64,000 bases of DNA from Planctomycetales bacterium 10988 (lineage in GTDB: Bacteria > Planctomycetota > Planctomycetia > Pirellulales > Pb10988). This document shows, piece after piece, positions 25,109 to 55,365 of the stretch (position 1 is its first letter; every line of letters starts with the position of its first letter). The DNA lies in contig CP043547.1 of NCBI GenBank assembly GCA_009664345.1, positions 4,120,709 to 4,184,708 of the forward strand, written 5' to 3'. Below the pieces are notes generated by a model that saw only the letters and a list, made by a program, of their open reading frames with translations, was not told where the DNA came from and ran no database searches. The translations under genes and the position numbers were made by a program.

Positions 25109-25584
25109 ACTGGACTTTCCGCAAGCCCAAGAAGTTTTGAGTTCGTAGATTGCAGACATGGCTGACTGAAGTTTTTCAGTCAGCGATTAGTTCGATTGTC
25201 GTTCCTCAACCTGCTGGAGCATTCCTGTCCAAACTCGCTGCCGAGCCACTCAATCGCCTCGTCGAGAGGGGCAAATGGTTCGCCATCGAATGCGTTGTAG
25301 TGCTGGTCAGCGACCGGCCTCAAGAGTGCCCGAGGTACATCGAGTCTGATGCCAGCAACTCTTGGTTGCCTCGCAGTTTCGTGGAGCCGGACTCACCCTA
25401 GCAAATCAAAGCCTCTTCTCAATTAGTGGAGGCGTGGTCGGATGGATCGGATAGAAACGGGCTTTTGGATCGGATAGCAGTCCAAAACCGAGATTTGGAA
25501 GGGACACGAGACTTGTCGTAAGTGACTGACGGGAAAGTAGTTTGGGTACGGTTTCATGTGACTCCCACCAAGTGTCCAGCGATT
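25109..25584. other. Intergenic region at the island end
   Basis: No supported gene; an 83-codon frame from a TTG at 25150 lacks a ribosome binding site and a family match. It contains TTAGTGGAGGCG at 25423-25434, the reverse complement of CGCCTCCACTAA found at the second att copy (30458). Confidence 0.5.
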
Positions 25585-25597
25585 CCCGCCGCCTCCA
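25585..25597. other. att core, left copy (tmRNA 3'-end-like)
   Basis: CCCGCCGCCTCCA, here preceded by CGATT, resembles the last bases of many tmRNA genes. The same 13 bases recur at 30453-30465. No tmRNA body is seen upstream, so this is probably the right end of one element and the left end of the next. Confidence 0.6.
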
Positions 25598-25605
25598 TCA
25601 CACAC

Positions 25606-25638
25606 AGCCACTTGCGAATTTCGCAAGTGGCTGTTTTT
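25606..25638 (+). terminator. Terminator behind the left att core
   Basis: AGCCACTTGCGAA and TTCGCAAGTGGCT form a perfect 13-bp stem followed by GTTTTT, placed nine bases after the att core, as expected for a gene ending at the core. Confidence 0.75.
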
Positions 25639-25702
25639 CTTGGCGTTTACGTCGTTTTCTGAGTCACATTTTCGACTAAAACCATCGAAACACAGACTGT
25701 AT

Positions 25703-25783
25703 TGTTGATTTACGAGGGGTGCATTGTTGATTTTGGGCTTCCACGATTTCCCCAAGAAGGGTAGTCTAGGCTCGAAATCAACA
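25703..25783. promoter_or_regulatory. TGTTGAT repeats, left end of the element
   Basis: TGTTGATTTA at 25703, TGTTGATTTT at 25725 (22 bases apart), and an inverted copy AAATCAACA at 25775. They lie between the att core and the integrase gene and match repeats at the other end of the element, so they may be integrase arm-type sites. Confidence 0.55.
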
Positions 25784-25806
25784 ACCAAGTTCCCAGAGAC
25801 ACCACG

Positions 25807-27549
25807 ATGGCGACCATCTACGACACTGAACTCAAACAGGCGAAGGACGGCACTTTTTACCGCTGGATTGGGGAGGACGAAAAAGGCACGAAGCAGAACT
25901 TCCGGCTCGGACGTGACAAGCCAGAAGCGAAACGACGACTTCGGCTCATCCTTGCCCTCTACGAAACCCAAGCCCAAGCCGCAGAGTTCTACGGCGGTTC
26001 ATGGGTTTCGGAGTTTCTGGCCGCAGCAAAGAAGATCGCAAAGGGTAAAAAAGCTGTTCTGCCTCGGTTGTCACTTCGGGTGAATGAGACCGACTCCGTT
26101 CAGGAGTCCGCAGAGACCTACGCTAAGACGCTGGCGTATCTCAACATGGATGGGGAGGCATTTCAGCCTGAAAGATCGGACGACTTCACAGACGCTCTCA
26201 GAGCCGTAGAAGCCGACCAGCGAAGAAACCGGCTCATCCGGTCGAAGCTCACCGGATCGAACCCAGATAACGACCCCACAGGTCAGACAGTCGGTCAAGC
26301 CGTTGATGCTTTCATGGATTATCTCAAAGCACAAGAAACGCTCCCAGACGGAAGCCTCTCGACTTGGGGACGGACGCAGTTCAACCAAGTGAAATCATGG
26401 CGTCGATACATGTCTGTTTTCACGGGAATGAAGAACGGTGAGCAGGTCTCACTTGGGCTACTTGACACCGATCTTGCCGACCTGACCGTCGCAAAAGCTC
26501 AACAGATGGTTGATACCACACGAAAACGGCCACTGACATTCGAGAGCAAGCAAACCAAGAGAATGACTCCTAAGTCGGCAGGGAGCATCAACAAGAAGAT
26601 CAAACATTTTTTCGATTGGCTCGACTTGTCTGATGAATGGAGTTGGTTTGAGCCGCCACGCTTTCGCAAGGTCGCCTACAAGGTGTCACCACTCACGGCG
26701 GAAGAGAAGCACCAACGGAAGCTCAAAAAAGAGAAGTGGCGTATCACCGACGACGAAATACAACTTTTGTATCGGTATGCGACCCCTGCGGAACGCATTC
26801 TCATTCTGCTCGGTCTCAACTGTGCATTCGGGGCTGGGGAGATTGGAAATCTCCGTATTCCCTATGTGAAGTTCGAGATGAAAGAAATCGACGGCATCCG
26901 CTTCAAGACGGGAAATGACACTCGGCATCATCTGTGGAATGAGACCATTGAGGGATTGCAGTGGGAACTGAGCCGACGTGAACAACTCCCCAAGACCGAC
27001 CGGAGCAAAGACATCGTATTTCTGTCCGAGAAGGGAGGAAACCCATTGTGGTCTCGCACAAAATCTGGCAACTACAACAACGGTGTCGCCAAGCGATGGA
27101 ATGATCTGATGAAGCGAGTGAAGAAAGATCATCCCGACTTCCACGATTATAGTTTCGGAAAGCTCAGGAAGACGGCGGCAATTCGGGTCATCGAACTGGC
27201 AGATATGGAAGCCGCCAGCATGATCCTAGCCCACGGCATTCCATCCGAAGACAAGCTGTTATCCGCCTATGTCAGCATTCCGTGGGAGAAGCTCTATGAG
27301 GCTCAGGAAGCGTATGGTGACACCATTCGTCCGCTTCTCCACACTGAGGGCAATCCTTTCGAGCAACCGCCAAAGGACTACATCGGGAAGAAACGAGCAT
27401 TACAAATTTTGGAACAGTTCAAGGCTGGTGTTCCAGTCGCCCATATTGCTCGAAAAGCAAAGGTCTCGGTGATGACAGTCTATCGTCACGTTGATCGGGC
27501 AGGACTGAGAGACAATGAGCCGCCATCGGGGACAGAACAGGCTACCTAG
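25807..27549 (+). CDS. Tyrosine-recombinase-like integrase
   Basis: 580 residues. The N-terminal half (to about 330) includes a core-binding-like segment (TVGQAVDAFMDYLKAQ). The catalytic half shows LGLNCAFGAGEIGNLR, a GNDTRHH segment, FGKLRKTAA and AHGIPSEDKLL, then Tyr near SAYVSIPWEKLY. This is a phage-integrase layout, but the first Arg and the H of HxxR are not in standard places, as in a divergent planctomycete-type integrase. A helix-turn-helix (VAHIARKAKVSVMTVYRHV) sits at the C-terminus. It is the first gene inside the att core and is read into the element, as integrases usually are. Confidence 0.75.
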   Translation: MATIYDTELKQAKDGTFYRWIGEDEKGTKQNFRLGRDKPEAKRRLRLILALYETQAQAAEFYGGSWVSEFLAAAKKIAKGKKAVLPRLSLRVNETDSVQESAETYAKTLAYLNMDGEAFQPERSDDFTDALRAVEADQRRNRLIRSKLTGSNPDNDPTGQTVGQAVDAFMDYLKAQETLPDGSLSTWGRTQFNQVKSWRRYMSVFTGMKNGEQVSLGLLDTDLADLTVAKAQQMVDTTRKRPLTFESKQTKRMTPKSAGSINKKIKHFFDWLDLSDEWSWFEPPRFRKVAYKVSPLTAEEKHQRKLKKEKWRITDDEIQLLYRYATPAERILILLGLNCAFGAGEIGNLRIPYVKFEMKEIDGIRFKTGNDTRHHLWNETIEGLQWELSRREQLPKTDRSKDIVFLSEKGGNPLWSRTKSGNYNNGVAKRWNDLMKRVKKDHPDFHDYSFGKLRKTAAIRVIELADMEAASMILAHGIPSEDKLLSAYVSIPWEKLYEAQEAYGDTIRPLLHTEGNPFEQPPKDYIGKKRALQILEQFKAGVPVAHIARKAKVSVMTVYRHVDRAGLRDNEPPSGTEQAT

Positions 27550-27679
27550 TAGTATAAGGGAACAACACGACAACAGGAGGAAGAAAAGGACACATCGTCA
27601 CTACCATAAAAAGAGCCGTGATGCCAGATAACACCACGGCTCAGAAATCAGTGTGCCGACCAGTTGAGACCAGACGACG

Positions 27680-28543
27680 ATGAAGACACCTTCACAGTAT
27701 TGTAGTAATGACGATGGAAAATTATTCCAAACGAACCCCACATATCACAAACCCAGCCAGTTCAGGGCGAAGGGGTGGACAGAGACCGTTGAGGGATACA
27801 TCAATGAAGCCAAGCAATGGGCAATGTGCATCAACCGCAACAGGAAACTGATGAAGCGACCCTACACATGGGTCGTGCATCTGAACATGAACGAAGAAGT
27901 CTCACCCGAATATGTCTCACCGATGTGGAGCAAGGTCACTCGGAAGCTGAATGCTTACGGTGTCGTCTGTCTTTGGGTTCGGAAAGTCAATCGGCTCAAC
28001 AAAATCCACTATCACATCATAGTCAAGAACCGCATCTCAGCAGATGATCTGAAAGCTGCCATTGAAGACTCCATGCCCCCTCGCAGTGAAGTGATGTGGC
28101 GAAAGAGAGTCGAGGAAATCGAGTCTCAATGGCACTTGGCTTACTACGTCGTGAAGGCGAAAATCAGGGGGAAGACAAGAACAGGCAAGTATGTCAATGA
28201 CCTGTATCGAAACAAGCGGCTCTTATTCAAGCCGCATTTGGGCTTTCGTAAGGCAGGCACGGTTGGGAGTTTTTGGGAACAGGAAAAGAGCAAGACGAAG
28301 ATGTGGGCGGATATCCAAGCCATTGAAAAGAAGATCGCAGAAGGACTAGAAAATCCTGATGTGGTGAAATTGGTCGATCATGTTTCCGACATGCTGGGGG
28401 AGACTGTGCCACGTTCCAGAATTGAACGATCTTTCGGATATTGGTCAGACGCCCCGTCAGTTCAGGATTGGATCGACCGACTATTAGCCGTTGATTGGGA
28501 CGATGACCCGTGGCTAATAACGCCCGAATCGGGTTCTTCATAA
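27680..28543 (+). CDS. HUH-type replication initiator-like protein
   Basis: 287 residues. KIHYHIIVKN near residue 112 is the His-hydrophobic-His metal site of HUH endonucleases, and WHLAYYVVKAK near 155 supplies a Tyr-x-x-Lys catalytic element. These two motifs in this order are typical of rolling-circle Rep proteins and relaxases. The rest is basic and helical. It lies in the 4.9-kb element between an integrase and a serine recombinase, so it may drive copying of the excised circle; this is inference. Confidence 0.7.
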   Translation: MKTPSQYCSNDDGKLFQTNPTYHKPSQFRAKGWTETVEGYINEAKQWAMCINRNRKLMKRPYTWVVHLNMNEEVSPEYVSPMWSKVTRKLNAYGVVCLWVRKVNRLNKIHYHIIVKNRISADDLKAAIEDSMPPRSEVMWRKRVEEIESQWHLAYYVVKAKIRGKTRTGKYVNDLYRNKRLLFKPHLGFRKAGTVGSFWEQEKSKTKMWADIQAIEKKIAEGLENPDVVKLVDHVSDMLGETVPRSRIERSFGYWSDAPSVQDWIDRLLAVDWDDDPWLITPESGSS

Positions 28544-28746
28544 CCACTTGATACAACGGCAGTTATTGTCGCTTGCTGGAGGTCTGTTGGTGCTTTTTAC
28601 AGGGGCTACCCTAGTCGGTTTGTGTTACAAAAGTTGTATTGGAGAATTTCCCTGCAAATCCTCTCCATTTCAGTTCCGGTCAATGGGGTTCAGTATCGGC
28701 TATGCCAGTTCTTTCTTTTATTGACCTTAGCAGAATAACTACCTCC

Positions 28747-29034
28747 ATGCGGTTCACATCATTCACCGAATACGTTCAATGGCGAGAAGGTCTTCTCGCA
28801 CCAGATAAGCCACGATGGCTTGGGATGCCACGCATGAACACGACCCCATTGACCAATCAGCAACGGCGGAAGCTGTTCCCGAAAAAGCCACAGAAGCCAA
28901 AGCCGCTCAAGCCAACGATACGCAACGTCGCAGATTCGCCCAAGCCAATGGTAGGTTCACACCCCTCCAAGTGTCCGATTGCCACGAGTAAAACTTCGAC
29001 TCCACAAGCATCACCCTCCCTCAAGAAGAATTAG
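28747..29034 (+). CDS. Small Pro/Lys-rich hypothetical protein
   Basis: 95 residues starting at the ATG at 28747; earlier in-frame starts (28639, 28702) lack sequence character. The N-terminus (SFTEYVQWREGLLAPDKPR) and the NTTPLTNQQRRKL block look conserved and recall small planctomycete proteins of the type 'WREGLL-DKP'. The remainder is Pro- and Lys-rich and probably unstructured. Function unknown. Confidence 0.5.
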   Translation: MRFTSFTEYVQWREGLLAPDKPRWLGMPRMNTTPLTNQQRRKLFPKKPQKPKPLKPTIRNVADSPKPMVGSHPSKCPIATSKTSTPQASPSLKKN

Positions 29035-29046
29035 GACATTCCAGAC

Positions 29047-29532
29047 ATGCCAGTCTCACATCCAGAGATTCCAGAACTTCTCGTTGCCCTGTTGGACGAA
29101 GCGTTTGAGAATCCAAATGATGATTGGAGCTACTTTCTTGATCCGTCACCAACATCAGGATACTTCGGTTCACTTAAAGATGTTTCGGCAACAGATGCCA
29201 TGCTTGCCGTTGGAGGATCGTCGATTGCGAGTCAGGTTAAACATGCCACTTTCGTAATGGAGGTGGCTGCCGACCTGCTGAGCGGTGTCAAAGACTCTCC
29301 CAATGCAGAGGAGTGGGAGAAAAGTTGGCAAGTAGAGAAACTCGACCAATCTAAGTGGATGAAGTTGCAAGAGTCCCTTCGCTCGGCTTATCTGGAACTT
29401 CGGAAGAAGATCGCAGAACATTCAACAGATGACGTGAAGGCTTTCAGCAATTCAGTTGCCCCCATCGCTCACCTTGCCTACCACCTGAGTGCAATCAAGC
29501 AGAAGATCGCTTTCCAGAAGAGTGATGGTTGA
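29047..29532 (+). CDS. DinB-like helical protein
   Basis: 161 residues, mostly alpha-helical. His residues sit in VKHATFVMEVA and AHLAYHLSAIKQ, with W-rich stretches between (EEWEKSWQVEKL), a pattern like DinB four-helix proteins that bind a metal through spaced histidines. It ends before a terminator at 29575. The fold is inferred from the pattern, not from a firm match. Confidence 0.55.
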   Translation: MPVSHPEIPELLVALLDEAFENPNDDWSYFLDPSPTSGYFGSLKDVSATDAMLAVGGSSIASQVKHATFVMEVAADLLSGVKDSPNAEEWEKSWQVEKLDQSKWMKLQESLRSAYLELRKKIAEHSTDDVKAFSNSVAPIAHLAYHLSAIKQKIAFQKSDG

Positions 29533-29574
29533 TCTCTGGCTGACAAAAAGGGTGTCGCCAAAGACGATCCATCT

Positions 29575-29599
29575 AACCCCAGTTTTTGCTGGGGTTTTT
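29575..29599 (+). terminator. Terminator after the DinB-like gene
   Basis: AACCCCAG and CTGGGGTT form an 8-bp stem with a TTTTTG loop, followed by TTTC. Confidence 0.75.
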
Positions 29600-29635
29600 C
29601 TTGGCAGTAGATATGCCAAATAGCATTTACCCTAA

Positions 29636-29664
29636 TTGACAGTGCAGGTCAAGTGGTCTATCAT
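29636..29664 (+). promoter_or_regulatory. Promoter of the serine recombinase gene
   Basis: TTGACA (29636-29641), a 17-base spacer and TATCAT (29659-29664), a near-consensus sigma-70 promoter. The -10 box lies 27 bases upstream of the chosen ATG. Confidence 0.65.
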
Positions 29665-29690
29665 GGGTGAAACACTCTTGGGAGACCATC

Positions 29691-30284
29691 ATGACCATCG
29701 CTTGTTACGTTCGAGTTTCCAGCAGCCGCCAGAAAGACGACAGCCAACGTGCCGAAATCCAGAAGTGGCTTGACGCCAACGGGATCGACCCGAACCAAGT
29801 CGAGTGGTATGCCGACAAGGAATCTGGTCGCACCACGAAGCGACCAGAGTTCGACCGGCTTCAAGGAGACATCTTCTCTGGGAAGGTCAAGACGGTCGTT
29901 CTATGGAAACTGGATCGCCTCTCACGTCGTCTTCAAGACGGTGTGACCATCTTGGCTGATTGGGCAGACCGTGGCTTGAAGATCGTGGTTGTGACCCAAC
30001 AGTTGGAGTTCAACGGTGCTATCGGTCGCACCCTTGCCGCCCTTCTCTTGGGGCTGGCTGAAATCGAATGGGAATACCGAAAGGAACGCCAAGCTGCTGG
30101 TATCGAAGTCGCCAAGAAGAAGGGGGTCTACAAAGGTCGCCAGAAGGGAACAACGAAGGGCAAACCCAAGAGAGCAATAGAACTCCGTGACAAGGGCATG
30201 ACCGCCCCCGAAATTGCCAATGCACTCGGCGTGAGTGAAAGAACAGTCTTCCGGTATCTGGGTGGTGAACCAGCGAAGGTGTAA
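29691..30284 (+). CDS. Serine recombinase (resolvase/invertase)
   Basis: 197 residues with the full small serine recombinase layout. The catalytic Ser is in CYVRVSSSRQKDDSQ near the N-terminus, followed by LWKLDRLSRRLQDG (near 69), the long E-helix (LLGLAEIEWEYRKERQAAG) and a C-terminal DNA-binding helix-turn-helix (MTAPEIANALGVSERTVFR). ATG 29691 has GGGAG upstream; the longer GTG start at 29667 would overlap the promoter. It probably resolves dimers or inverts DNA in the integrated element rather than integrating it, since a tyrosine integrase is also present. The cognate site may be the repeats just downstream. Confidence 0.9.
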   Translation: MTIACYVRVSSSRQKDDSQRAEIQKWLDANGIDPNQVEWYADKESGRTTKRPEFDRLQGDIFSGKVKTVVLWKLDRLSRRLQDGVTILADWADRGLKIVVVTQQLEFNGAIGRTLAALLLGLAEIEWEYRKERQAAGIEVAKKKGVYKGRQKGTTKGKPKRAIELRDKGMTAPEIANALGVSERTVFRYLGGEPAKV

Positions 30285-30316
30285 CTTTCCACACCGGCGA
30301 AAATGCCGGTCGGAAG

Positions 30317-30371
30317 TGTTGATTTTCGCCCCCTGAAAATGTTGATCTGAGGGGGTGAAATGTTGATTTTC
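30317..30371. promoter_or_regulatory. TGTTGAT repeats, right end of the element
   Basis: TGTTGATTTTC at 30317, TGTTGATCTGA at 30340 and TGTTGATTTTC at 30361, spaced 23 and 21 bases, with CGCCCCC and GGGGGTG forming an inverted pair between them. The same heptamer occurs beside the left att core. They may be integrase arm sites or resolvase sites. Confidence 0.55.
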
Positions 30372-30452
30372 AGCCTGCACCCCAAACGGTCAAAAACCCG
30401 AAACCCCACTGCTTTCAGCACTTACGACAACCCCATAAATCACGACCAAAGA

Positions 30453-30465
30453 CCCGCCGCCTCCA
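30453..30465. other. att core, right copy
   Basis: CCCGCCGCCTCCA repeats the left core 4,868 bases away and is followed by CTAAGAAGCCG. It is taken as the right border of the integrated element. Confidence 0.6.
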
Positions 30466-30470
30466 CTAAG

Positions 30471-30507
30471 AAGCCGTCTTATGAATCTTCATAAAGGCGG
30501 CTTTTTT
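30471..30507 (+). terminator. Terminator behind the right att core
   Basis: AAGCCGTCTTATGAA and TTCATAAAGGCGGCTT form a long stem with one bulge, followed by TTTTT. The group II intron begins right behind it. Confidence 0.75.
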
Positions 30508-30508
30508 G

Positions 30509-32417
30509 TTTGCCAGACATGTTTTGTTTGTAGGAGGTGGAAGTCCTCTGAGGGCCGTGATGAGCGGAACCTCGCGGTGAAGGCAAGGGTGTCCGTGGTG
30601 ACGCGGAATCTGAAGGAAGCTGGAACCACAACTCGGACTCGACGAACAGAAATCGGATACAAGGCCATTCACGTTGGGCAACCCGGCAATGGACGGGGAC
30701 GCCCGATCCTCATCCGGAAACGGGAGTGGTAGATCCGGCGAGGCCCGAGGGAAACAAGCACGACTTAACCTGGGAGGTCTCTCGCTTTGTTCAGGCGATC
30801 TGAACTAGGGAAGCGGCAACGCTTCGAGAGGAGGGGGGGAGAAGTCAGCAGAGGTCATCGTAGTTGATCGCCGATCAGCGAAGGACCGAATCCTTTGATT
30901 CAGGGAGCAGTTTGACCATTTCGATGAGTGCGAAGCGGCAGCAAAGCGAAGCGTATCGGCAGTTGCTCTTATTCGAGAGCGACGAGTCGAACACTTTGCG
31001 CCACGGCACCGACGGCGACGGCGGAACCGAAGCCACGATGCTCGAGGAGCGGCAACCACTCACGGCAATCGATCAACAACGAGCCTTGACGCAGTATTTG
31101 ATGGAGGAGGTGACGAAACCTGAGAATTTGAACCAAGCGTATCGACGCGTCAAAGCGAACAAGGGAGCTGCGGGTATCGATGGGATGACCGTCGACAAGT
31201 TGCTCGACTGGTTCGCCGAGCACAAGGAGGAATTTCTCGCTGGGCTGCTCGACGGCAGCTACCAACCGCAACGGGTGCGGGGTGTTCAAATCCCCAAGCC
31301 GGGCGGAGGAGTGCGACAATTGGGCATTCCCACGGGGGTGGACCGTCTCGTCTAGCAAGCGATCCTGCAAGTGCTCGAACCGATCGTGGACCCGACCTTC
31401 TCGGACTCCAGTTATGGCTTTCGACCCGGCAAGAGTGCCCATCAGGCGCTCAAGCAGGCGAGCGAGCACGTGGCGGAGGGGCGGACAATCGTGGTGGACA
31501 TGGACCTCGAAAAGTTCTTTGATCGGGTGAACCATGACATCCTGATGTCGCGCCTGGCCCGACGGATTGGTGACAAACGTCTGCTAAAGATCATCCGTCG
31601 CTTTTTGCAAGCGGGGATGATGCAGCATGGCGTCTGCATCGACAGACATGAAGGGACACCGCAAAGAGGGCCATTATCGCCGTTGTTAGCGAATTTGCTA
31701 CTGGATGATTGGGATCAGGAACTGGAAAAGCGCGGCCATAAGTTCTGCCGATACGCGGATGATTGCAGCAGCTATGTGCGGTCGATAGCGGCTGGCGAAC
31801 GGGTGCTCCAATCGCTGACGCAGTTCTTGGAAGGAAAACCTCGTCTGAAGATCAATCAGAAGAAAAGTGCGGTAGCCCTTGTGAGCGAACGCAAGTTCCT
31901 CGGCTACCGTCTTCTTCCCGATGGCCAGTTGACGATTGCTCTGGCCAGTCTCCAGCGAGCCAAAGACCGCATCCGGCAAATCACCCGCAGAAAACGAGGC
32001 ATCAGTTTCGAGCGGATGATGGGTGAAATCAACTCGTTCACGATCGGTTGGGTAACGTACCTCCGTCTGGCGGAAAGTCGTCGCTCCCTTCGGAATCTGG
32101 ACAGTTGGATTCGCCGCAAGTTGCGATGCGTGCGGCTCAAGCAACGCAACGCCAAGTCGATCGCCACCTTCCAACAAACGCTGGGCGTCCCTTGGAGCCA
32201 ATCCTGGACGACGGCGGCCTGTGGGAAAGGCTGGTGGCGCACGTCGGGAACGCCTTCGGCGCACCACGGCATGAACAACCACTGGTTTGAAATTCAAGGC
32301 TTCAAGAGCCTCGAAGCCAGATAGGGGACGTTAAGAAGTTAAAGGAAATCGCCGGATACGATGAGTACGTCCGGTGGTGTGGGAGGACGGCGGGGACAAC
32401 CCCGCCTCCTACCCGAT
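30509..32417 (+). mobile_element. Group II intron, probably of the terminator-targeting type
   Basis: The 5' part contains a typical domain I string, GGTGTCC then GGAATCTGAAGGAAGC (near 30588-30622). The reverse transcriptase gene lies inside, and the 3' end has a domain V-like hairpin (GCCGGATACGATGAGTACGTCCGG near 32350) and a domain VI-like stem ending CCTACCCGAT (near 32408). The 5' boundary cannot be fixed, since no GTGCG start is seen; insertion directly behind the terminator is the site preference of class C introns. Insertion here is consistent with either that class or chance. Confidence 0.75.
30924..32324 (+). pseudogene. ltrA: Group II intron reverse transcriptase/maturase, interrupted by a stop
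   Basis: 467 codons in one frame, from an ATG at 30924. The RT0-RT7 blocks are visible: GAAGIDGMTVD, VQIPKPGG, SYGFRPGKSAHQA, DLEKFFDRVNHD, GTPQRGPLSPLL, YADDC and the maturase end GKGWWR. A TAG at 31353-31355 replaces the Gln expected after GVDRLV; one C-to-T change would explain it. The usual GTPQGGP motif is GTPQRGP here. Both argue that the intron no longer makes active protein and could move only if helped by another maturase. An artefact in sequencing is possible for the stop. Confidence 0.85.
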
Positions 32418-48417: not shown

Positions 48418-49946
<1,529 letters not shown>

Positions 49947-50264
49947 GGTTATTTTGATGCGAATGAAATCTCAACTTCTCAGTGACAAGCACCAAAAAGT
50001 TAACACCCCCTCGCCTTAGAGCCAACAGAGTTTGTTAAAGTTAGTTTGACGGTAACATCTTTAGTAGCAGAACCCTGGAGAAGACCCTACTTCACTCAAA
50101 CAAGCCCAACCTTACTATCAATACAGCGAACCATATCCATAGAAAAGCGAACTGTCCAAGCTCCGCAGAACCCAACCTCGCAAAGCTCTTTGTCGCCACC
50201 AAAAATGCGACCTCATCTCCAAGCTACAATTTTGTCTTAGAGTACAAAAAGCTATCAACCAACA

Positions 50265-52075: not shown

Positions 52076-54972
<2,897 letters not shown>

Positions 54973-55255
54973 ATTGATTGTATCCCTTCTTCCAAACGAA
55001 GGTAATTCAACCCAATGTTCAAGCTCGCAAAATACGAAATTTTTAACCACTACAATCTCTCTTTTCAATTCCCCGCTGAGTTCTCAATGCCTTCGCACGA
55101 AGGATCAACAGAACCAACCCGGTGGAATACACAAAAGACTCAAAAAAATGTCAGATGATACAAGCCGCGTTTGACTTGCAAGGATGCCGATTTCGGTCTC
55201 CAAGCAAGAAACAACGCCTCAGGAAAAGGCACGGTTGAGCCCGACCTTTTCCTTT
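54973..55255 (+). other. 23S-5S spacer
   Basis: About 280 bases, longer than usual, without a tRNA or recognised gene. Confidence 0.7.

Positions 55256-55365
<110 letters not shown>

What the first reader, a model, noticed from the sequence alone, without database searches (positions are those of the whole stretch)
25585..30465. A 4.9-kb integrated element bounded by tmRNA-end-like att cores
A 13-bp core occurs at both ends, each with its own terminator, and TGTTGAT repeats lie inside both ends. The element holds an integrase, an HUH protein and a serine recombinase, and could be a very small integrative element not described before.
Basis: partly seen in the sequence, partly recalled or inferred. 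Interest (0 to 1): 0.7.

Follow-up and report, generated by a model that had tools for sequence, protein, structure and literature searches.

The report
Tiny mobile element at tmRNA gene
A planctomycete chromosome carries a very small (4.9 kb) piece of mobile DNA stacked behind a larger one at the end of the tmRNA gene, and comparison with relatives suggests that such elements share one landing site but each mark their own ends with a private repeated DNA motif set at fixed distances.

Summary
The chromosome's tmRNA gene lies 62.6 kb upstream. Its 3' end recurs exactly at 25581-25597 (17 bp) and 30453-30465 (13 bp); these three are the only exact copies of the 13-mer in 6.65 Mb. So tmRNA is followed by two tandem elements, each with its own tyrosine integrase: A (62.65 kb) and the finding, B (4.87 kb). 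B also encodes a probable HUH replication protein (motifs present, homology weak), a serine resolvase and two orphan ORFs.

Related integrases occur in 73 of 397 genomes of the class; 27 of 30 loci inspected sit behind the tmRNA-end core. They lack the usual first catalytic arginine but share an invariant R-x-K, and carry a C-terminal helix-turn-helix. B is the smallest of 19 delimited elements.

Unexpected: elements carry their own short repeat inside both ends. Its sequence differs between elements, yet its copies keep common distances from the core and helical spacing; four of five extra ends, one at tRNA-Ser, fit.

Excision, replication, transfer, and insulation between stacked elements are inferred. 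No circle or empty site was available.

The parts
25444..25475 (+). Right-end repeats of the upstream sister element A (GGATCGGAT at 25444-25452 and 25467-25475)
   Evidence: Same motif three times direct plus once inverted at A's left end just after tmRNA
25581..25597 (+). Attachment core between A and B, 17 bp identical to the tmRNA 3' end (last 13 bp = CCCGCCGCCTCCA)
25604..25639 (+). Intrinsic terminator after the core (replacement tmRNA terminator)
   Evidence: z -8.5; similar hairpins follow the tmRNA end in relatives, seen by eye
25703..25783 (+). Left arm-type repeats TGTTGATTT: 25703-25711 (+), 25725-25733 (+), 25775-25783 (-)
25807..27549 (+). Tyrosine integrase, 580 aa: arm-binding-like N domain, core-binding and catalytic domains, C-terminal helix-turn-helix; G342 at the Arg I position, R365-x-K367, R454, H476, Y488
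27613..27642 (+). Hairpin GAGCCGTG...CACGGCTC between integrase and HUH gene (terminator without T run, or candidate replication origin; unresolved)
   Evidence: z -4.1
27680..28543 (+). Probable HUH replication initiator, 287 aa (H110-Y-H112; candidate catalytic Y155/Y156 followed by K159)
   Evidence: PF23343 REP_ORF2-G2P E 0.0026, below gathering; motif positions checked; no homologue found where searched
28639..29034 (+). Orphan ORF, 131 aa (start codon uncertain)
   Evidence: no Pfam, PHROGs, NCBIfam or PADLOC match at the limits used
29047..29532 (+). Orphan ORF, 161 aa
   Evidence: no Pfam, PHROGs, NCBIfam or PADLOC match at the limits used
29575..29600 (+). Intrinsic terminator
   Evidence: z -3.6
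29691..30284 (+). Small serine recombinase of resolvase/invertase type, 197 aa, with C-terminal helix-turn-helix
   Evidence: PF00239 E 5.5e-32; phrog_125 DNA invertase E 5e-46
30317..30369 (+). Right arm-type repeats TGTTGAT at 30317, 30340 and 30361
30453..30465 (+). Distal attachment core CCCGCCGCCTCCA
30468..30507 (+). Terminator after the distal core, presumably the ancestral tmRNA terminator displaced by both insertions
   Evidence: z -5.3; identity as ancestral terminator is inferred

Best explanation
The 4.87-kb segment is a site-specific integrative element (element B) that entered the 3' end of the tmRNA gene through its own tyrosine integrase and is now the distal of two tandem elements there. 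It belongs to a planctomycete family defined by a divergent integrase. Proposed working: the integrase binds the core shared with tmRNA and, with another part of the protein (more likely the N-terminal domain than the C-terminal helix-turn-helix, on weak evidence), element-specific repeats at both ends; synapsis excises a circle and restores the neighbouring core. The circle is copied by the HUH protein by rolling-circle replication and multimers are split by the serine resolvase. Shown by sequence: target, ends, genes, family, end repeats and their geometry. Inferred: integrase activity, which domain reads the repeats, replication, resolution, spread, and that the different repeat motifs keep stacked elements from excising each other.
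For: Exact core copies confined to this locus and tmRNA. Integrase beside the left core; among 30 family loci inspected (A's included), the tmRNA-end core lies upstream of the integrase in 27, two are at tRNA-Ser and one lies behind a variant core. Next same-strand core copies in relatives delimit 17 further elements of 8.0-88.2 kb besides A and B. B's repeats at both ends. For 22 intervals, the left end shares most 8-mers with its own right end in 10, ranks 2-4 in 10 and fails in 2 (the alternatives that outrank are listed). Motif-free spacing test: 7-mer self-matches at 12 and 22 bp in 20 left ends, 42 and 52 against shuffle means 0.18 and 0.10. At least two copies near common positions in 37 of 37 left ends, and in four of five further ends. 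R-x-K, R, H and Y present in 33 of 33 integrases aligned. The five genes of B are on one strand and cover 84% of it.
Against: No empty site, circle or strain without B: the closest held genomes are of the same order only and do not share the flanking gene order. The HUH protein has no significant homologue where searched, a below-threshold Pfam match and a poor model (pLDDT 47). No recognisable excisionase. B could be immobile now. The motifs counted were chosen by me from the same regions, with up to 2 mismatches in 9, and the six position windows cover 42 of the 140 positions scanned, so the 37 of 37 says less than the spacing test. One extra end (L157) is displaced by about 15 bp. Seven of seven tandem neighbours have different motifs, but only 35 of 666 random pairs (5.3%) share one, so this does not support insulation.
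Confidence: 0.87

Rival explanations
1. B is an integrative mobilizable element: the HUH protein acts as a relaxase on the excised circle and B is transferred by a co-resident conjugative element.
For: Proteins related to rolling-circle Rep initiators are putative relaxases in many small mobilizable elements (PMC5704250, passages read); Tn5520 also holds just an integrase and a mobilization gene (title of its paper, seen in that review's reference list).
Against: No relaxase family match; no origin of transfer was recognised, though none was searched for by a dedicated method; the weak match is to a replication-protein family.
Confidence: 0.25
2. B is a satellite of a temperate phage that uses the same integrase clade, packaged by the helper.
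For: The highest-identity integrase found (53%, L182) and another (42%, L183) lie in IMG/VR virus contigs; L183 encodes what I read as a terminase small subunit.
Against: No phage structural or packaging match in B by PHROGs; the HUH protein was not found in either virus record, which may be fragments; 4.9 kb is below the sizes I recall for such satellites (recalled, not searched).
Confidence: 0.12
3. B is a decayed remnant of a larger island that kept both ends.
For: Its sister A and 16 of the 17 delimited elements of relatives are 23-88 kb; core intervals without a family integrase and broken integrases occur in relatives (G121, G257, G238, G527).
Against: Integrase and recombinase frames are intact, both repeat sets and both cores are intact, coding density is 84%.
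Confidence: 0.12
4. The end repeats are integrase operators or replication iterons, not recombination arm sites.
For: The left set lies just upstream of the integrase start codon, so it could also control that gene.
Against: The same motif recurs at the other end, mostly 70-140 bp inside the distal core, far from the integrase gene, with helical spacing.
Confidence: 0.15

Closest known systems
tRNA/tmRNA-gene genomic islands (Islander database, PMC4383910, passages read)
   Same: Tyrosine integrase, integration at a tRNA or tmRNA gene, displaced target fragment marking the far end, tandem arrays with one integrase and one fragment per island
   Different: 4.87 kb is far below the two size peaks given there (13.6 and 39.9 kbp); divergent integrase that Pfam's Phage_integrase model finds in only 2 of 10 aligned members at E 1
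Dehalococcoides ssrA islands (PMC3146451, passages read)
   Same: Tandem islands behind ssrA with short ssrA-end repeats; a second small serine recombinase in the module
   Different: Their integrase is a CcrB-like serine recombinase; here it is a tyrosine integrase, with element-specific repeats at common distances from the core
IntCTnDOT integrases, including CTnDOT and Tn5520 (PMC8138268, passages read)
   Same: First catalytic arginine missing, another arginine downstream available; arm-binding N-terminal domain described there and suggested here by the model
   Different: Planctomycete family with a C-terminal helix-turn-helix; target is mostly tmRNA; place in that subgroup not tested by tree
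Small integrative mobilizable elements such as Tn5520 (PMC5704250, passages read)
   Same: Few genes: an integrase plus a mobilization-type protein (Tn5520's size of about 5 kb and the HUH nature of its protein are recalled)
   Different: Tn5520 prefers AT-rich sites according to that review; B has a specific site and a resolvase. The review names a still smaller element, MTnSag1, 1.7 kb

Membership tests
tmRNA-gene integrative island | Displaced 3' fragment of the tmRNA gene marks the far end, same orientation | tested here: met
tmRNA-gene integrative island | Integrase gene inside the element next to the target end | tested here: met
   family adjacency in 27 of 30 loci
tmRNA-gene integrative island | Excision restores the target; empty site exists | not testable with these tools
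   no close relative held; needs PCR or reads
IntCTnDOT subgroup of tyrosine recombinases | Arg I replaced by an arginine elsewhere | tested here: met
   G or D at the Arg I position and R-x-K in 33 of 33; that this arginine is catalytic is inferred
IntCTnDOT subgroup of tyrosine recombinases | Arm-binding N-terminal domain | tested here: inconclusive
   strand-strand-helix at residues 17-58 in the model; no Pfam arm-domain among the 25 of 54 families shown
IntCTnDOT subgroup of tyrosine recombinases | Clusters with CTnDOT/NBU integrases in a tree | not tested
   no such sequences were compared
Integrative mobilizable element | Relaxase and origin of transfer | tested here: inconclusive
   HUH motifs only; no relaxase model match
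Rolling-circle replicon | HUH initiator with catalytic tyrosine | tested here: inconclusive
   H110-Y-H112 and Y155/Y156..K159 in sequence; PF23343 E 0.0026 below cut-off
Phage satellite | Packaging or helper-interference genes | tested here: inconclusive
   no such PHROGs match in B, but two ORFs are orphans

The most novel reading that the evidence does not exclude
Planctomycete tmRNA elements share one integration core and one protein-DNA geometry, but each carries a private arm motif read by its own integrase. The motif acts as an address code that lets several elements stack at one gene and be excised one by one. The 4.9-kb element shows how little DNA such a system needs: core, coded arms, integrase, replication initiator and resolvase.
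Probability: 0.45. Interest if true: 0.75.

Novelty: new variant of a known kind. Interest (0 to 1): 0.6.

Why it matters
Integrases with an arm-binding domain bind core and arm sites separately. A family in which the core stays nearly the same, the arm positions stay the same and only the arm sequence changes is a natural series for learning how arm-binding domains read DNA and how stacked elements avoid excising one another. It also gives a sequence rule (core, then repeats about 90, 102, 113, 125, 136 and 148 bp on) that may find and delimit mobile elements in planctomycetes, where Pfam's general integrase model found 2 of 10 aligned members.

Tried and rejected
Empty site: 28 of 39 same-order genomes (own included) gave a tmRNA over the family's cut-off. 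I fetched 10.3-20 kb around 20 of the 27 relatives' tmRNAs and used the short loci of the other 7. Of 14 flanking proteins only two gave hits, both weak and in different loci (28% in L087, 25% in L073; members of protein families that I recall as large in planctomycetes), so no empty-site comparison is possible; 3 of 27 carry the integrase behind tmRNA.

HUH relatives: none but itself in 294 phylum genomes, none in viral contigs, phages, plasmids, solved structures at E up to 10 (73) or two virus records (85). The collections genome contigs and metagenome contigs were not searched with it. Single-sequence model too poor to search (58).

C-terminal helix-turn-helix as reader of the repeats: not supported. 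Similarity of motifs follows the integrase as a whole (Spearman 0.48 catalytic, 0.42 core-binding, 0.39 N-terminal, 0.18 helix-turn-helix). Partial correlation is 0.15 for the N-terminal domain (5 of 400 permutations as high) and -0.05 for the helix-turn-helix (322 of 400); the partials for the catalytic (0.23) and core-binding (0.22) domains are higher still (0 of 400 each), so the evidence for the N-terminal domain is weak. 33 of 37 integrases were used; 4 broken or cut ones were dropped; 435 of 528 pairs had all domains.

Insulation from tandem neighbours: 7 of 7 pairs differ in motif (motifs of second elements read by eye), but so do about 95% of random pairs: no evidence either way.

Intervals left out of the 19 sizes: those whose left core is not followed by a family integrase that I checked (G121 second and third, G345 second and third, G349). 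Only exact 13-mers were sought, so a diverged core inside an interval would be missed; G361 looks like two fused elements.

Literature on planctomycete tmRNA islands: four listings held the three terms and none looked to be about this from title and start of abstract (listing only); some searches gave the precedents cited.
Full report
What was checked. The window is part of a 6.65-Mb single-contig chromosome (genome 4120709-4184708). The organism is a planctomycete by inference: a genome that the tool calls same phylum (G199) holds a contig identical to one titled Planctomycetota. The exact 13-bp core occurs three times in the chromosome, always on the + strand: at the 3' end of the tmRNA gene (4083640), at window 25585 and at window 30453. 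The middle copy matches tmRNA over 17 bp. So tmRNA is followed by element A (62.65 kb) and element B (4.87 kb, the finding), then by the distal core, a terminator and a group II intron.

Anatomy of B. From left: core, terminator, three TGTTGATTT repeats (the third inverted), integrase (25807-27549), a hairpin, the probable HUH protein (27680-28543), two orphan ORFs, a terminator, a serine recombinase (29691-30284), three TGTTGAT repeats, core. The serine recombinase is clear (PF00239 E 5.5e-32). The HUH call is weaker: PF23343 at E 0.0026, below its gathering score, with H110-Y-H112 and Y155/Y156..K159 in the right order by my reading.

Element A. A's integrase (583 aa, L004:8853-10604) is 28% identical to B's and starts 200 bp after the tmRNA core. 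Its repeat is TGGATCGGAT, three direct copies and one inverted at the left end and two at the right end.

The integrase family. B's integrase found relatives in 14 of 294 phylum genomes, own included. A ten-member alignment found 73 of 397 genomes of the class at E 1e-20; at most three candidates per genome were scored, so this is a lower bound. I examined the 30 loci that the call delivered, A's included: 27 have the tmRNA-end core upstream of the integrase, one of them with a one-base variant; two lie at tRNA-Ser; the last (L151) has the same variant core just upstream. The 33 integrases aligned all lack arginine at the usual Arg I position (glycine or aspartate instead) and all have R-x-K, R, H and Y. 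A published survey describes the same loss in CTnDOT and Tn5520 integrases, with another arginine further downstream doing the work in CTnDOT (PMC8138268, passages; the exact CTnDOT residue numbers I recalled only). The AlphaFold model (pLDDT 75.6) shows an N-terminal strand-strand-helix unit, core-binding and catalytic parts and a C-terminal helix-turn-helix; its best PDB matches are Tn1549, Xer and lambda integrases, at modest scores (TM by query length up to 0.33). Only 2 of 10 members match Pfam's Phage_integrase at E 1, whereas 10 of 10 match HTH_23.

Sizes. In relatives, further same-strand copies of the core lie downstream. Taking the distance from the core beside a family integrase to the next same-strand exact copy, 19 elements can be delimited: B 4.87 kb and 18 others (A and 17 in relatives) from 8.0 to 88.2 kb. 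Some integrases are broken or cut, among them that of the 8.0-kb element G257. Intervals without a checked family integrase at the left core were not counted; one of them, 6.47 kb in G345, holds a different integrase.

Private repeats at common distances. Elements carry their own repeat near both ends. Among 22 intervals, the left end shares most 8-mers with its own right end in 10, ranks 2-4 in 10 and fails in 2. Of the ten in between, six are outranked only by ends with the same motif (G069, G449, G345 third, G385, G595, G527); in G361 the ends that outrank carry its left-end motif, because its right end has another; G364, G345 first and G312 are outranked by one or more unrelated ends. In 37 left ends the motif differs widely (for example TGTTGATTT, TGGATCGGAT, GTGTCAGGTTAG, GGTCCAATTAG, GTGGCCAATTAG, TTCCGATAAG, TGTCTGATTT), yet all 37 have at least two copies within 3 bp of positions 90, 102, 113, 125, 136 or 148 after the core. 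I chose the motifs from these regions, allowed 2 mismatches in 9, and these windows cover 42 of 140 positions scanned, so this count alone is soft. Without choosing motifs, 20 left ends, picked to limit shared motifs, show 7-mer self-matches at spacings 12 (42) and 22 (52) against shuffle means of 0.18 and 0.10; in total 195 against a mean of 9.0 and a maximum of 22 in 60 shuffles. Fifteen right ends give 69 against 11.8, maximum 24. Five left ends not used for the rule: L149 (91, 114, 136, inverted 166), L153 at tRNA-Ser (103, 126, 148, inverted 173), the second element of G527 (102, 114; only 130 bp held) and L151 (93, 105, 126) fit; L157 at tRNA-Ser has the spacing but starts at 118. This is the anatomy of arm sites of a lambda-type integrase with the spacing held and the letters free.

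What it most likely does. Established knowledge of such integrases says that core and arm sites are bound by different domains of one protein. The simplest account is that each integrase recognises its own arms, so that elements sharing one core remain separate units. The motif follows the integrase, but I cannot tell which domain reads it, and the difference between tandem neighbours is what chance would give. Rolling-circle replication by the HUH protein and multimer resolution by the serine recombinase are inferred from gene content.

Relation to what is known. Islands at tmRNA and tandem arrays are known (PMC4383910; PMC3146451 for Dehalococcoides, with a serine integrase; passages read). 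Elements with little more than an integrase and a mobilization protein are known from Bacteroides (Tn5520), and the same review names one of 1.7 kb (PMC5704250, passages read). Two relatives of B's integrase lie in virus contigs (53% and 42%), so the clade also serves what look like prophages. I found no description of the planctomycete family, of the lattice or of an element like B in the listings; most subscription papers are not in that library.

Verdict. By anatomy a real, very small, tmRNA-targeted integrative element; a new variant of a known kind. The more surprising point, same core and geometry with private arm motifs, goes beyond the finding as given and is directly testable.

Noticed in passing
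genome 4083640-4146305 (window 1-25597 is its right part): A 62.65-kb sister element in tandem, with its own integrase next to tmRNA and its own end repeat TGGATCGGAT.
   Followed up: partly
window 30592-32324: A group II intron lies just after the terminator behind the distal core; its reverse transcriptase frame is split by an in-frame stop at 31353-31355.
   Followed up: no
window 26757-26771 and 28626-28640: A perfect 15-nt inverted repeat (AATACAACTTTTGTA), itself nearly palindromic, one copy inside the integrase gene; 1 of 300 shuffles of the element had a repeat that long. Could be a regulator or recombinase site.
   Followed up: partly
L125 (G199:C583), cores at 1439, 1544, 1651 of the reverse complement: Three cores about 105 bp apart, each followed by a hairpin-like stretch with no room for a gene between: an array of apparently empty attachment sites behind a tmRNA end.
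   Followed up: no
L166 578-7043 (G345): A 6.47-kb interval between two cores with a different tyrosine integrase on the opposite strand whose frame runs across the core (named by my reading).
   Followed up: partly
G361, G390, G437 behind tmRNA: A second, shorter integrase homologue (matching from about profile position 150) follows the first within about 0.3-0.6 kb.
   Followed up: no
G361 right end (L169): Right-end repeats GTGGCCAA belong to another motif class than the left end GTGTCAGG, suggesting two elements fused with a core lost between them.
   Followed up: no
L182, L183: Virus contigs whose integrases are 53% and 42% identical to B's; what look like an excisionase and a helicase-like replication protein (L182) and a terminase small subunit (L183) follow, so the clade may also serve prophages (gene names by my reading).
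   Followed up: partly
window 48425-49947 (-) and 52076-55365 (+): 16S and 23S-5S rRNA genes are about 2 kb apart and divergent.
   Followed up: no
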